From Prolixibacteraceae bacterium (lineage in GTDB: Bacteria; Bacteroidota; Bacteroidia; Bacteroidales; Prolixibacteraceae), in contig JABGRN010000027.1 in assembly GCA_018648265.1 (NCBI GenBank), forward strand, positions 1 through 55,206: DNA of 55,206 nt, written 5' to 3'. Shown one piece after another: positions 1 to 4,963 of this stretch (position 1 is its first letter; each line of letters starts with the position of its first letter). A program made the translations under genes and the position numbers. The notes below the pieces were generated by a model. It saw only the letters and a list, made by a program, of their open reading frames with translations, was not told the origin of the DNA and did not search any database.

Positions 1-1690
1 AAAATTATGTGACCGATGCCCAAAAAGTTGTTATTGAAAATACCAGCGGCGCAAATACCGGCGACCAGGACATCGGTGGGATTGATGATAACGCTGCCGA
101 TATTACCACCAAAGTAGATAAAAACACAAATATTACAGGAGATACAAAAACCAAAATCACCTACGATGCCAAAGGTTTGGTAACTGCCGGGACCGATGCC
201 ACCACCGCCGACATTGCCGCCAGCAGCAACAAAAATTATGTTACCGACGCCCAAAAAGTTGTTATTGAAAATACCAGCGGCACAAACACCGGCGACCAGG
301 ACCTCAGCGGGATTGCAAGCAACGCAAGCGATATTACCACCAAAGTCGATAAAAACGCAAATATTACAGGAAATACAAAAACCAAAATTACCTACGATGC
401 AAAGGGTTTGGTAACTGCCGGGGCCGATGCCACCACCGCAGACATTGCTGCCAGCACCAACAAAAATTATGTGACCGATGCCCAAAAACTTGTAATTGAA
501 AATACCAGTGGAACAAACACCGGCGACCAGGATATTAGCGGGATTGCATACAATGCAGCTTTTACTGCTACCAAAGTAGATAAAAACGCCGATATTACGG
601 GGGCAACAAAAACCAAAATTACCTACGATGCCAAAGGTTTGGTAACTGCCGGAATCGATGCCACCACCGCCGACATTGCCGCCAGCACCAACAAAAACTA
701 TGTGACCGATGCACAAAAAATTGTAATTGAAAATACCAGCGGCACAAACTCCGGCGACCAGGACCTCAGCGGGATTGCCGATAACGCAGCCGACATTACC
801 ACTAAAGTAGATAAAAACACAGATATTACGGGTGCAACAAAAACCAAAATTACCTACGATGCCAAAGGTTTGGTAACCGCCGGGACCGATGCCACCACCG
901 CAGACATTGCCGCCAGCACCGACAAAAACTATGTTACCGATGCCCAACAAACAGTTATTGAAAATACCAGCGGAATAAATTCCGGCGACCAGGACATTAG
1001 CGGGATTGATGATAACGCAGCCGATATTGCCACCAAAGTAGATAAAAATGCCGATATTACGGGGGCAACAAAAACCAAAATTACCTACGATGACAAAGGT
1101 TTGGTAACTGCCGGGGCCGATGCTACCACTGCCGACATTGCCGCCAGCACCAACAAAAATTATGTGACCGACGCACAAAAAATTGTAATTGAAAATACCA
1201 GCGGCACAAACACCGGCGACCAGGACATCAGCGAAATTGCAACCAACGCAGCCGACATTGCCACCAAAGTAGATAAAAACACCGATATTACTGGTGCAAC
1301 AAAAACCAAAATTACCTACGATGCCAAAGGTTTGGTAACTGCCGGAACCGATGCCACCACCGCAGACATTGCCGCCAGCACAAACAAAAACTATGTTAAT
1401 GATGCAGAAAAAGCAGTAATTGAAAATACCAGCGGAACAAACACAGGCGATCAGGACATTAGTGGAATTGACGATAACGCAGCCGCCATTACCACCAAAG
1501 TAGATAAAAACACAAATATTACAGGAGATACAAAAACTAAAATCACCTACGATGACAAAGGATTAGTAACTGCCGGTACCGATGCCACCACCGCCGACAT
1601 TTCCGCCAGCACCAACAAAAATTATGTGACCGATGCCCAAAAAGTTGTTATTGAAAATACCAGCGGCGCAAACACCGGCGACCAGGACTT
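1..1690 (+). repeat. 231-bp in-frame tandem repeats (7 full units plus a partial eighth)
   Basis: The conserved valine codon of YVTDAQ recurs at 9, 240, 471, 702, 933, 1164, 1395 and 1626, exactly 231 bp (77 codons) apart. Units are nearly identical in DNA. Differences cluster after GDQD and around the residue following NITG. Units 1 and 7 share the same variant combination (IDDNA, NTNITGDT), and units 5 and 7 share a DDKG variant, suggesting shuffling between units. Confidence 0.95.
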
Positions 1691-2513
1691 ATCATCGCTT
1701 GCCTTAAAAAGTAATGTACTTGAATTGGATAATACTACCCTGTTTACACCCGATGCAGATTACGAACCGGCTACAAAAGCGTATGTAGATGTTTTATTGG
1801 CAAGAATAGAAGCATTGGAAGAAACTACAGATGTACTAAATAATGGCTTTATTGATACTCGTGACGGCAATCATTATGATGTTGTAAAAATAGGCAACCA
1901 AATATGGATGGCAGAGAACCTGAAATATTTGCCAAGTGTAGTTGGTCCTGGCACCGGCTCAGAAACAAGCCCGTATTATTATGTTTATGATTATGATGGA
2001 ACAGTTGTAGCCGAAGCCAAGGCAACCGCTCATTACAGTACTTATGGAGTTTTATACAACTGGCCGGCTACTATGAATGGAGCAATAAGCAGTACTGCCA
2101 ACCCAAGCGGAGTGCAAGGTGTTTGCCCAACTGGTTGGCATTTGCCCAGCGATGCCGAGTGGACAGAACTGTCGGATTATTTGATTGCAAACGGGTATGG
2201 TTATGGAGGCAGTGGCGATGACATTGCAAAATCATTGGCAACAACAAGCAATTGGAGTGCAAGCGCCACACCCGGTTCACCAGGCAACGACCCTGCAAGT
2301 AACAACAGCAGCGGTTTTTCTGCCCTTCAGGGCGGCTACCGTGGCAGCACTGGCAGCTTCAGCGAGGTTGGCGACCACGGTTACTGGTGGAGTGCTACGG
2401 AGGAGGAAGGTTCACACGCGTGGACCCGGCACTTGCACTACCGCGGTTCAGATGTGGGCCGGTACTACGACTTCAAGGAGCACGGGTTTTCGGTACGGTG
2501 TATTCGGGATTAG
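1..2513 (+). CDS. Repeat-rich surface protein with C-terminal FISUMP domain (5' partial)
   Basis: The reading frame runs in from the left edge (codons begin at base 3) and no true start is visible, so the protein is N-terminally truncated; at least 836 residues are seen. About residues 1-560 are 77-aa repeats, each with YVTDAQ, IENTSG, NTGDQD, TKTKITYD and KGLVTAG blocks, resembling repeats in phage tail-fibre and adhesin stalks. A linker with an ATKAYVD motif and a short coiled-coil-like stretch follows. From about residue 615 comes a FISUMP-type domain (IGNQIWMAENL near its start, GWHLPSDAEW, YWWSATE, terminal GFSVRCIRD). FISUMP belongs to the C-type-lectin-like folds found in some DGR variable proteins. 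The last 60 codons are far richer in GC than the rest. The likely role is an extracellular binding protein; ligand unknown. Transcription appears to end before the IS at 2562. Confidence 0.85.
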   Translation, partial: NYVTDAQKVVIENTSGANTGDQDIGGIDDNAADITTKVDKNTNITGDTKTKITYDAKGLVTAGTDATTADIAASSNKNYVTDAQKVVIENTSGTNTGDQDLSGIASNASDITTKVDKNANITGNTKTKITYDAKGLVTAGADATTADIAASTNKNYVTDAQKLVIENTSGTNTGDQDISGIAYNAAFTATKVDKNADITGATKTKITYDAKGLVTAGIDATTADIAASTNKNYVTDAQKIVIENTSGTNSGDQDLSGIADNAADITTKVDKNTDITGATKTKITYDAKGLVTAGTDATTADIAASTDKNYVTDAQQTVIENTSGINSGDQDISGIDDNAADIATKVDKNADITGATKTKITYDDKGLVTAGADATTADIAASTNKNYVTDAQKIVIENTSGTNTGDQDISEIATNAADIATKVDKNTDITGATKTKITYDAKGLVTAGTDATTADIAASTNKNYVNDAEKAVIENTSGTNTGDQDISGIDDNAAAITTKVDKNTNITGDTKTKITYDDKGLVTAGTDATTADISASTNKNYVTDAQKVVIENTSGANTGDQDLSSLALKSNVLELDNTTLFTPDADYEPATKAYVDVLLARIEALEETTDVLNNGFIDTRDGNHYDVVKIGNQIWMAENLKYLPSVVGPGTGSETSPYYYVYDYDGTVVAEAKATAHYSTYGVLYNWPATMNGAISSTANPSGVQGVCPTGWHLPSDAEWTELSDYLIANGYGYGGSGDDIAKSLATTSNWSASATPGSPGNDPASNNSSGFSALQGGYRGSTGSFSEVGDHGYWWSATEEEGSHAWTRHLHYRGSDVGRYYDFKEHGFSVRCIRD
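2331..2510 (+). other. Candidate hypervariable region (DGR VR-like) at 3' end of FISUMP gene
   Basis: By hand count 110 of these 180 bases are G or C (61%), against an AT-rich gene and window. Many codons are NNC (GGC, AGC, TTC, GAC, CAC, TAC, CGC, ACC), as expected if AAC codons of a template repeat had been converted at adenines. The framework residues of the fold (GGYR, YWWSATE, GFSVRC) are intact. No reverse transcriptase gene or template repeat was found in this window, so the assignment is inference. Confidence 0.45.
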
Positions 2514-2552: not shown

Positions 2553-2561
2553 ACCTTGGTA
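2553..2561. repeat. Left 9-bp target site duplication of the IS
   Basis: ACCTTGGTA abuts the left terminal inverted repeat and recurs at 4608-4616 directly after the right one. Confidence 0.8.
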
Positions 2562-2571
2562 CAACGATTTT
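2562..2571 (+). repeat. Left terminal inverted repeat of the IS
   Basis: CAACGATTTT is exactly complementary to 4598-4607. Confidence 0.8.
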
Positions 2572-2592
2572 ATTACAGTAATTCATCTTACA

Positions 2593-3969
2593 TTATTTGA
2601 ATCTAAAGTCAAGTTTAAAATCATAGAGCCAGGGAATTTTGGGATTAATCCCCTGGCTTAGCAATTTGTTGGGCAAATCAATATATTCCTCTTTTTTTCT
2701 GTATTGAGATGGGCCATAAAATGTAACTATAATTGTATCGTCTTTAACTCTCACATCACCATCATTCCAAGCTAAAATTTCGTTGGAAAGATGTCTGGCA
2801 TCCCATGTTTTATAATCGTGTGTTAGGTTCTTTCTTAATTCATAGGTTGCTGCTTGAGCCAGCATTGCCATTGCCAGGTTGGCATACCTGATATTAAGAT
2901 TCAATGTCGAAGCCCGGTTTAATCCCATGTCATTTTCAAATCTAAAAAACTCTTCCACACTCCAACGTTCATCATAATTTTTACACAAAAGCGTTTGCGC
3001 ATTCCTGCTTGACGTGGTTAAAAACGAACTATAACCATACTTTTTTTCTCCCAGTCGTTCTGCAATAAGCCTGTGTTTTGTCTTTTTCCCATCAAAATTG
3101 AAGTTTGTTTCTGCAATCGCAAACCCTGCTTTTATTCTTTCATATTCAAGTGCCTGCAGAATATTTTTTGTTCGCCGTGTATTTTGGGCAGGGACTAATA
3201 AATCAAAATTATGATGCTTTGATATTTTTTCAAATAGCTCATTTGTAAAATGCTCCTTATCCGCTATTAATAGAGATGGCGTTTTTATTATCTGTTCAGT
3301 TGCGTTTATTAAGTCTAATGTTGCCCTTGTTGTTGGCATACCCGTTGATGACATAAATGCCATTATTGGTTGCCCTGTTTCTGCCGACACGCAAAAAAAA
3401 GTTTGAAGCATCTTTTGCGAGGGCATATCGGGCTTTTTCTTTTTTTTAGGCATTGTCCGCTTTGAACTACTGATTATCCTATGCGGATCAACTGCAATTA
3501 TCTCTCCCTGATAATGTCCTGAAAGTTTACGCTGGATTCCCAGATTGAGCATCATATCACGGGACTCTCGTAAGGTGTGTGCATTCAACAATTGATGCAC
3601 CTGCTCATCTGAAACCAACCTACTCATCCCATTGAGCAATTGAAACCCTTGATGGTTCAAAGAACTTTTTCTCCTCACGCGATTAACACACAAGGCAGAT
3701 TCATTTACCAGTTGGAGTGCTATTCGTGGCTCTATATCTGTATCCATTTTGCCAGTCCAACTTTTGAGGATATCCCATGCCCCCAATTTTAATAGCGCAG
3801 GAACCAACAACCACAGGCCTACGGTTGTGCCAGATACTTTTTTTGCAAGCACCTCTCGAAATTCTCGCTCATTCGTCTGGGGTGTTAATGTCTTCTTGCG
3901 GTTACTGCGCTTGATTTTTTGTTCAATTATTACAACTCCCTCATCTTTCTTAGTTGTCTTATGTAGCCC
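2593..3969 (-). CDS. IS4-like DDE transposase, OrfB portion
   Basis: This is the catalytic half of the transposase. It contains the three acidic motifs of an IS4-like DDE/RNase H fold: AVDPHR, LIADKEHF and YDERWSVEEF. The last fits Y-(2)-R-(3)-E, but the lysine expected six residues on is replaced (N follows EFFRFE). The frame is open upstream to 4002 with no ATG near its beginning. The first conventional start is a GTG at 3852 and the first ATG is 35 codons further in, so efficient independent translation is unlikely. Joining at the slippery site (3969-3975) gives a product of about 593 residues with the OrfA helix-turn-helix at its N-terminus. If expressed alone from the GTG it would be 419 residues. 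Confidence 0.8.
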   Translation of the reverse strand, partial: GLHKTTKKDEGVVIIEQKIKRSNRKKTLTPQTNEREFREVLAKKVSGTTVGLWLLVPALLKLGAWDILKSWTGKMDTDIEPRIALQLVNESALCVNRVRRKSSLNHQGFQLLNGMSRLVSDEQVHQLLNAHTLRESRDMMLNLGIQRKLSGHYQGEIIAVDPHRIISSSKRTMPKKKKKPDMPSQKMLQTFFCVSAETGQPIMAFMSSTGMPTTRATLDLINATEQIIKTPSLLIADKEHFTNELFEKISKHHNFDLLVPAQNTRRTKNILQALEYERIKAGFAIAETNFNFDGKKTKHRLIAERLGEKKYGYSSFLTTSSRNAQTLLCKNYDERWSVEEFFRFENDMGLNRASTLNLNIRYANLAMAMLAQAATYELRKNLTHDYKTWDARHLSNEILAWNDGDVRVKDDTIIVTFYGPSQYRKKEEYIDLPNKLLSQGINPKIPWLYDFKLDFRFK

Positions 3970-4373
3970 TTTTTTTGAAGGCCATATGTATTGATCGTAC
4001 GCTCAACACTCCTTTGACTTATAGCATGGCCCGTTTGGTTCATCTTTTGGGCAATAACCTCACTGTTCGCCTCTGGGTCCAAAAAGCGGTGCCTGATTAT
4101 CTGCTTTTCTATCTCATCTGTACGTTTATAATTGACCTTGGGGCCTTTGGGTTTGTCAGATAGGGATAAACATCCACCCTCTTCATACTGTTTTTTTATC
4201 TTATAAAAATGCTCCCGTGTGTAACCATACTTCCTGGCTAATTTTTCGATACTATCTTCGTTTGCCGATGCGGCTTCCAGCAACATCGTAAATTTCCAGG
4301 CAATTGCATCAGTTGACCCTACCGTTAATGAAATGGAACCTTTAAAAGTTTTAGCTGCCTTGTTAGTTTTCAT
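3930..4373 (-). CDS. IS OrfA, helix-turn-helix DNA-binding protein
   Basis: The 147-aa protein starts at the ATG at 4373; an upstream extension to 4427 exists but adds only a hydrophobic stretch with no similarity to a binding domain. Residues about 25-60 form a homeodomain-like helix-turn-helix (EKLARKYGYTREHFYKIKK), and a second HTH-like segment follows (EVIAQKM...ISQRSVERTI). It resembles the N-terminal DNA-binding regions of transposases. The frame overlaps the OrfB frame over 3930-4002 and contains the slippery run. OrfA alone could act as a regulator or inhibitor by analogy with other two-frame IS elements; that role is inferred. Confidence 0.75.
   Translation of the reverse strand: MKTNKAAKTFKGSISLTVGSTDAIAWKFTMLLEAASANEDSIEKLARKYGYTREHFYKIKKQYEEGGCLSLSDKPKGPKVNYKRTDEIEKQIIRHRFLDPEANSEVIAQKMNQTGHAISQRSVERTINTYGLQKKGYIRQLRKMREL
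3969..3975 (-). other. Predicted -1 ribosomal frameshift slippery heptamer
   Basis: Read on the minus strand, the OrfA codons are CAA AAA AAG, giving the canonical A AAA AAG heptamer in the correct phase. Slipping back one base enters the OrfB frame, which then stays open to its stop at 2593. Eleven bases downstream lies a 6-bp stem (ACAACT/AGTTGT, 14-base loop), which could act as a weak stimulator. A simple indel in the run of seven A's is the alternative. Confidence 0.6.
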
Positions 4374-4597
4374 AAAAATGTAATTTATATTATGGCGATA
4401 TAAATTTATAAAAAATATCCCAATCACATCAATAAAATCACCAATATTAGCTTAAAATAGTTAATCATGCAGGGTTATTCAATCGTTAATACGAATTTAT
4501 AGCACATATGTCGCCATATTAAATATTACTTTTGCATATTATAAAATGAGGATAGTAGATAATTTATCTCTTATACTGTAATAATATCTACCTTTAA

Positions 4598-4607
4598 AAA
4601 ATCGTTG
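4598..4607 (-). repeat. Right terminal inverted repeat of the IS
   Basis: AAAATCGTTG is exactly complementary to 2562-2571 and is followed directly by the duplicated ACCTTGGTA. Confidence 0.8.
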
Positions 4608-4616
4608 ACCTTGGTA
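4608..4616. repeat. Right 9-bp target site duplication of the IS
   Basis: Second copy of ACCTTGGTA; see 2553-2561. Confidence 0.8.
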
Positions 4617-4725
4617 CGGGACAGGCTCGCTATCGGGACGAGTGGAACTCGTTTGTCTATTTGATTTATTTGTTTTGCCGCGAAGCGGTCGATTTTTTTC
4701 GGGTGTGGTGGTTTGCTTCTGGGTA

Positions 4726-4833
4726 TGGCGAATTCCAATTCGCCATTGGGACAGGGAGTTTCCAACTCCCTGATTTTAGTGTTGACGTTGGAATGTCAAG
4801 CCCCCCCGTTGGCGCGGATTTGCAATCCGTGCC
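4726..4833. repeat. Cluster of three REP-like palindromes
   Basis: Three compact hairpins lie in a row. The first is TGGCGAATT/AATTCGCCA with a 2-base loop (4726-4745). The second is CAGGGAGTT/AACTCCCTG with a 3-base loop (4752-4772). The third is GGCGCGGATT/AATCCGTGCC with one mismatch and a 3-base loop (4811-4833). Such GC-rich short palindromes resemble the REP sequences mobilised by RAYT (TnpA-REP) transposases; none is encoded in this window. Confidence 0.65.
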
Positions 4834-4963
4834 ATATTCTTAAACCGTGCCATATTCTTAACTTTATTGATATAATAAATAATCAATGAGCAGAAATTAC
4901 AAGTTTCATAATCCTGACGGTGTGGGTGGGCTTTTCTTCCCGGGGCCTTTCAAAAGGTTTAAC

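What the first reader, a model, noticed from the sequence alone, without database searches (positions are those of the whole stretch)
2331..2510. DGR-like hypervariable 3' end of a FISUMP protein
The last 60 codons are about 61% GC, enriched in NNC codons, and end a C-type-lectin-like FISUMP domain whose framework residues are intact. This is what a variable region looks like when AAC codons of a template repeat are mutagenised at adenines. The protein also carries a stalk of tandem repeats, fitting a display molecule. No reverse transcriptase is in the window, so a remote or upstream RT would be needed.
Basis: partly seen in the sequence, partly recalled or inferred. Interest (0 to 1): 0.78.

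Follow-up and report, generated by a model that had tools for sequence, protein, structure and literature searches.

The report
Orphaned retroelement target in surface protein
The end of this probable bacterial surface protein looks like a region once rewritten by a mutation-making retroelement, but that machinery was not found in the assembled genome and a jumping gene sits beside it, so the tip is probably frozen in its last form.

Summary
In detail: 2331-2510 has GC 0.61 and GC3 0.72, reached by none of 1,258 other 60-codon stretches of the window and by none of the genome's other FISUMP gene ends. NNC richness alone is not special; the gene's own stalk is as rich. The DGR reading holds for origin, not for present activity. 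The best relative, L026, is a complete diversity-generating retroelement: FISUMP target, bAvd, template repeat (TR) and RT, with TR-VR differences at 24/67 adenines and 0/92 other bases. Two more FISUMP DGR cassettes lie in another genome of the window's family. Against L026's TR the window differs at 43/71 adenines but 23/109 other bases (odds ratio 5.7); ten own paralogs give 0.8-2.5. The 3' flank of intact DGRs, with hairpin CCGCGAAGCGG and a T-run, is at 4649-4699, parted from the VR by an insertion sequence (2562-4607). No RT, TR or adjoining avd was found in the assembly. Verdict: an orphaned DGR target. Orphan targets are in print for Treponema, so this is a new member of a known kind.

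The parts
3..2513 (+). FISUMP target gene, 836 codons, open at the contig start, intact to its stop
1..1688 (+). tandem-repeat stalk, 231 bp x 7.3 copies
1884..2507 (+). FISUMP (Fib_succ_major) domain
   Evidence: model pLDDT 96.7 for 1863-2510
2316..2511 (+). DGR-type variable region (extent = stretch that aligns without gaps to the TRs of L277 and L278)
   Evidence: adenines 45/73 and 43/70 different, other bases 24/123 and 24/126; 43/71 and 23/109 against the L026 TR
2553..2561 (+). left copy of the 9-bp target-site duplication ACCTTGGTA
2562..4607 (-). insertion sequence, 2,046 bp, imperfect terminal inverted repeats (35 nt, 71% complementary)
2593..3852 (-). transposase ORF, DDE_Tnp_1
   Evidence: PF01609 E 3.7e-8; weak IS4-type match below cut-off
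3930..4427 (-). helix-turn-helix ORF of the insertion sequence
   Evidence: PF13518 E 1.1e-10
4608..4616 (+). right copy of the target-site duplication
4649..4699 (+). DGR post-VR flank shared with L026, L277, L278, L065, L067, G002 and G008
4678..4688 (+). hairpin CCGC-GAA-GCGG, followed by TCGA and a run of seven T (4693-4699)
   Evidence: its fold is not unusual against shuffles: z -1.56

Best explanation
The 3' end is the variable region of a DGR target whose diversifying cassette is absent from the assembled genome. In L026 the order is FISUMP target with VR, 43 nt later a hairpin with a T-run, then bAvd, TR and RT. By established DGR knowledge the RT copies the TR with errors at adenines and the copy replaces the VR, changing residues of a lectin-like tip. 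In the window the target gene and the hairpin flank remain, but no avd, TR or RT follows, and an insertion sequence has moved the hairpin from about 43 nt to about 2.16 kb from the stop codon. Shown: the architecture of the relatives, the adenine bias, the flank, the IS and the lack of RT and TR in the assembly. Inferred: the cassette was lost, or the target came without it; the VR is frozen at its last diversified sequence; even an RT supplied in trans would probably home poorly because VR and hairpin are parted; the protein still works as a stalked binding protein of one fixed, unknown specificity.
For: L026 is a complete FISUMP DGR (TR-VR 24/67 adenines, 0/92 others; bAvd E 1.2e-14; RT with GNLTSQ...YVDD). 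Two complete cassettes in G171, same family, other genus (33/73 and 33/70 adenines, 0/123 and 2/126 others). Window against the L026 TR: odds ratio 5.7, ten own paralogs 0.8-2.5. The flank with hairpin is shared and rare: 20-mer within 1 mismatch once each in 3 of 37 genus genomes. IS with 9-bp duplication between VR and hairpin. No RT at E 10 and no TR in the assembly. Parallel decay in the genus: truncated avd after the VR in G002 and G008, no DGR-type RT found in either.
Against: No TR for this VR exists in hand, so adenine mutagenesis is inferred from other DGRs' TRs that differ at about 20% of non-adenine bases. The assembly has 164 contigs and this gene lies at a contig end, so a cassette in a gap is possible. 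GC3-rich FISUMP ends do not track RT presence in the genomes tested (6 of 25 against 5 of 25). The hairpin has a 4-bp stem and folds no better than 16 of 200 shuffles; it may be a terminator. L026's pair also differs by one 3-nt insertion.
Confidence: 0.82

Rival explanations
1. The VR is still being diversified in trans by an RT and TR that lie in a gap of the assembly or on an unbinned replicon.
For: 164 contigs and a gene at a contig end. Target genes far from the DGR core and multi-target DGRs are described (PMC3521204 and PMC4891356 passages). The VR reading frame is intact.
Against: Completeness 100% with no RT of any kind at E 1e-3; none at E 10 with a DGR RT; the IS parts VR and hairpin, while in BPP-1 the region just after the VR with its hairpin is needed for homing (PMC3240598 passages).
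Confidence: 0.12
2. The target gene with its 3' flank was acquired alone, and no cassette ever stood at this locus.
For: L067 also has VR and hairpin flank with no avd after it. The gene is richer in GC than the neighbouring ORFs. The authors of PMC4891356 name this alternative for a Treponema target (passage).
Against: In L026, L065, G002 and G008 an avd or avd relic follows the same flank, so loss in place is a simple history; the two cannot be separated from one genome.
Confidence: 0.3
3. An ordinary FISUMP end, GC-rich by horizontal transfer or codon choice, with no DGR history.
For: FISUMP ends vary naturally; own paralogs also show some excess at TR-adenine positions (odds ratio up to 2.5). 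GC3-rich ends do not track RT presence.
Against: The window matches a DGR TR at 79% of non-adenine bases, own paralogs at 40-59%; the DGR flank with hairpin is present.
Confidence: 0.05

Closest known systems
FISUMP DGR of L026 (Bacteroidales UBA6244, DJVY01000159.1), found here
   Same: FISUMP target with similar stalk motif and coil, 61% identical best segment, same post-VR flank and hairpin
   Different: avd, TR and RT present and in place; 43 nt between stop and hairpin; no IS
DGRs with Fib_succ_major/DUF1566 targets (PMC4159848 passages; PMC8143477 passages)
   Same: target domain class; C-terminal VR in a C-type-lectin-like domain
   Different: those have TR, and in Bacteroides uniformis phages RT too; from human microbiome and gut phages
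Orphan DGR targets of Treponema denticola isolates (PMC4891356 passages)
   Same: target genes with VRs in genomes lacking RT and TR, called remnants by the authors
   Different: other phylum and target; here the 3' flank is kept and an IS lies between VR and hairpin
BPP-1 DGR target site (PMC3240598 passages)
   Same: hairpin just after the VR in intact relatives
   Different: there 7-10 bp stems with GRNA loops 4-34 bp from the VR in the phage DGRs shown; here 4 bp stem with GAA loop, and in the window 2.16 kb away
TaqVP, Thermus aquaticus DGR variable protein (5vf4)

Membership tests
complete diversity-generating retroelement | DGR-type reverse transcriptase | tested here: not met
   no RVT_1 at E 1e-3 and no match to the L026 RT at E 10 in the assembled genome
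complete diversity-generating retroelement | template repeat with adenine-only differences to the VR | tested here: not met
   genome; window. The related TR as query found no copy better than E 0.34 here; it also missed the window's own VR, so, with the VR as query, is the stronger test (the same kind of query found a 73% copy in G002)
complete diversity-generating retroelement | accessory protein (bAvd) beside the target | tested here: not met
   none after the hairpin in the window (tblastn). Three bAvd-family matches elsewhere in the genome (contig 31) are below the family cut-off; their role was not examined
DGR target gene (orphaned) | VR at the 3' end with adenine-biased differences to a TR | tested here: met
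   only against TRs of relatives:
DGR target gene (orphaned) | post-VR flank with hairpin as in intact relatives | tested here: met
   displaced 2.16 kb by the IS; its role in homing is not tested
DGR target gene (orphaned) | C-type-lectin-like fold of the variable domain | tested here: inconclusive
active DGR target | excess variation at TR-adenine positions in strains or reads | not testable with these tools
   no strains or reads of this species at hand

The most novel reading that the evidence does not exclude
VR-plus-hairpin modules such as this one are portable, dormant targets: they persist without RT in this bacterial family and can be rewritten again when a DGR cassette with a related TR arrives, while an insertion sequence between VR and hairpin locks a useful specificity in place.
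Probability: 0.12. Interest if true: 0.7.

Novelty: new member of a known kind. Interest (0 to 1): 0.4.

Why it matters
It shows how a DGR appears to end: the diversified binding tip is kept while RT, TR and avd disappear. In this genus the parts are seen at several stages (truncated avd in G002 and G008; avd gone and an IS beside the VR in the window), and a genome of the same family still has two complete cassettes. That makes it possible to ask when diversification stops paying and a specificity is fixed. It also warns that a VR-like end in an RT-free genome need not mean a hidden RT, and offers the post-VR flank as a marker for orphan targets.

Tried and rejected
GC3 excess as a marker of DGR targets: 80 FISUMP loci (of 234 relatives, the best 80 kept) were ranked by it. 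50 of the 80, one per genome, were tested for a DGR RT: 25 from the top of the ranking and 25 picked by hand from lower down. 23 of 50 genomes matched at E 1e-3; I read the RT motif in 14 of the 23, the other nine, all weak matches, not. The DGR motif was seen in 6 of the 25 upper and 5 of the 25 lower genomes. The marker does not predict an RT and was replaced by the TR ruler. One search used 35 of the 80 loci, 10 own ORF ends (L013, in one ORF with L009, was dropped) and three genus loci.

Same-genome TR for other FISUMP ends: 14 RT regions, each against one FISUMP locus, gave no exact pair; best L177 with L099, 17/35 adenines and 6/53 others.

Phage or plasmid origin of the 3' end: no DNA match in either collection at E 1e-5; two relatives in viral contigs (36% and 33% identity), none of the L026 RT there. 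Hairpin as a common repeat: rejected, 3 of 37 genomes. bAvd family as a DGR marker: rejected, it matches in 32 of 37 genus genomes, over its cut-off in 13. No sequence relative of the domain in the PDB at E 0.01. The first RT motif scan used a wrong expression and printed nothing; one search replaced it. Two weak TR-VR-like pairs (L282, 6/25 and 1/23; L285, 5/20 and 0/25) were not followed. One fetched stretch of G002 around an RT fragment (L258) and one of G008 (L259) were not analysed.

Papers: FISUMP with DGR, 0 papers; GCGAAGC with DGR, 0 papers; searches for lost or remnant DGRs were seen as listings. PMC6642488 was searched for six terms with no occurrence. Orphan targets are in print, so no first report is claimed.

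Full report
The observation. The last 60 codons (2331-2510) of ORF 3-2513 have GC 0.611, GC3 0.717 and NNC 0.417; none of 1,258 overlapping sixty-codon stretches of 34 other ORFs in the window reaches any of these. The genome's 11 other FISUMP domains end 10 ORFs whose last 180 nt have GC3 0.25-0.52. The gene's own sequence before the VR is also NNC-rich (up to 0.53), so that part of the argument is weak. The domain is FISUMP by Pfam and NCBIfam; the stalk is a 231-bp tandem repeat.

The genome. The window is contig 13 of a 5.58 Mb, 164-contig assembly reported 100% complete. It has no RVT_1 match at E 1e-3 (the family rang in 3 of 14 control genomes), no match to the L026 RT at E 10, no second copy of the VR at E 1e-3, and an 18-mer of the VR framework, with 2 mismatches, occurs only in three FISUMP genes. 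A related TR as query gave nothing better than E 0.34; that query also missed the window's own VR, so it speaks only to a TR-like copy.

The intact relatives. The best of 234 relatives in genome contigs is L026, a Bacteroidales MAG contig; other top hits are labelled Bacteroidales or Prolixibacteraceae. L026 encodes a target with a similar stalk motif (NTGDQDLS) and coil, a bAvd protein (PF22296 E 1.2e-14) and an RT (RVT_1 E 3.8e-17) with the motif GNLTSQ...YVDD. Between avd and RT lies a TR that differs from the VR at 24 of 67 adenines and 0 of 92 other bases over 159 ungapped nt, with a 3-nt insertion further on. In the window's family, 13 of 140 genomes, its own included, have DNA similar to the VR at E 1e-5. 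I read 14 stretches from ten of them; two, both in G171 (another genus), are complete FISUMP DGR cassettes: adenines 33/73 and 33/70, others 0/123 and 2/126; RT 91% and 94%, avd 99% and 96% identical to L026. The TRs of L277 and L026 differ at 2 of 75 adenines and 13 of 125 other bases, as if the adenines were kept.

The ruler test. Codon-aligned to the L026 TR, the window end differs at 43/71 adenines and 23/109 other bases (odds ratio 5.7, p 1.1e-7). Ten own ORF ends give odds ratios of 0.8-2.5, with 41-60% of other bases different. The true pair gives 23/71 and 0/109. L065, L046, L031, L037, L080, G002 and G008 group with the window (odds ratios 4.3-6.0); the rest form a continuum down to 0.9. 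The p-value is not a clean probability, because TR adenines mark positions that vary in any such domain; the paralogs are the control.

The flank. In L026, L277 and L278 the VR stop is followed by one and the same 39-nt stretch, then a hairpin CCG(C/T)GAAGCGG and a T-rich run. In the window this flank is at 4649-4699, beyond an insertion sequence with imperfect terminal inverted repeats (2562-4607) and a 9-bp duplication ACCTTGGTA. The 20-nt hairpin motif within one mismatch occurs once each in 3 of 37 genus genomes: here, and in G015 and G021, there right after ORFs that look by eye like Lcl_C-type targets. An avd match follows in G015 (41% over 46 residues, E 4e-8, to the contig end); in G021 I see a broken avd-like reading by eye only, with no tblastn match at 1e-3. 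The core GCGAAGC is known as a very stable DNA mini-hairpin (recalled; one search lists papers that use it). In BPP-1 a hairpin right after the VR is needed for homing (PMC3240598 passages). Whether this shorter one does the same, or is a terminator, is not shown; by DNA folding it is no outlier (16 of 200 shuffles fold as well), and the G002 and L067 flanks fold hardly or not at all.

Decay in the genus. G002 (one contig) has a FISUMP VR, a degenerate flank and an avd whose similarity ends after about 47 codons. G008 has VR, hairpin and truncated avd on one contig and a stray intact avd on another. Their better RT matches carry group II-type motifs (QGG..SP), the rest are fragments (one G002 and one G008 fragment were not read for motifs). 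19 of 37 genus genomes have an RVT_1 match; among the loci that I read the only DGR-type motif is in G028, in a phage-like region with its own TR and two VRs of another target type (adenines 15/24 and 16/20, others 1/60 and 1/61). Not every match became a locus.

Mechanism and verdict. Shown: DGR-type target end, DGR flank, IS, and no RT or TR in the assembly. Inferred: past adenine mutagenesis of this VR, loss of the cassette or arrival without it, a frozen tip, and a further block by separation of VR and hairpin. Fib_succ_major targets of DGRs are known (PMC4159848, PMC8143477; passages) and orphan targets are described in Treponema (PMC4891356 passages). This is a new member of a known kind, with unusually legible anatomy.

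Noticed in passing
L277 (minus strand) and L278, genome G171: Two complete FISUMP DGR cassettes in one genome of the window's family, with near-identical avd and RT.
   Followed up: partly
window 4678-4688; L026 1120; L278 2562; L256; L082 1256: A GCGAAGC-type hairpin, usually with a T-run, follows the VR in several Bacteroidales DGR targets; stems of 4, 5 and 7 bp were seen.
   Followed up: partly
L137 (G028), also L184 and L185: DGRs with a GNYLSQ-type RT and two adjoining targets of a different kind (WWPWF...GFSGS), in G028 amid phage-like genes.
   Followed up: partly
L199 1480-1830 (G008): Intact avd gene standing alone between unrelated genes.
   Followed up: partly
G051:C137:5665-5955: DGR-RT-like match with three TAA stops in the genome of the VR-like FISUMP locus L093: perhaps another decayed cassette.
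   Followed up: no
L181 3666-3786 and 4322-4442 (G084): DGR with TR-VR differences at 14/30 adenines and 0/91 others in a genome labelled Patescibacteria; the target looks FGE-like by eye.
   Followed up: no
L175 3731-3843 and 4491-4603 (G072): DGR with an Lcl_C target (17/42 adenines, 0/71 others).
   Followed up: partly
L007 (own genome, contig 77): FISUMP paralog with an in-frame TAA.
   Followed up: no
window 4730-4860 and 2537-2544/4631-4638: Short palindromes (GGCGAATTCCAATTCGCC, GGGAGTTTCCAACTCCC and others) after the hairpin, and an imperfect palindrome split by the IS; they look like repeat elements.
   Followed up: no
G000 contig 31, 51908-55078: Three bAvd-family (below cut-off) genes in a row; similar sets occur in other genomes of the genus.
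   Followed up: no
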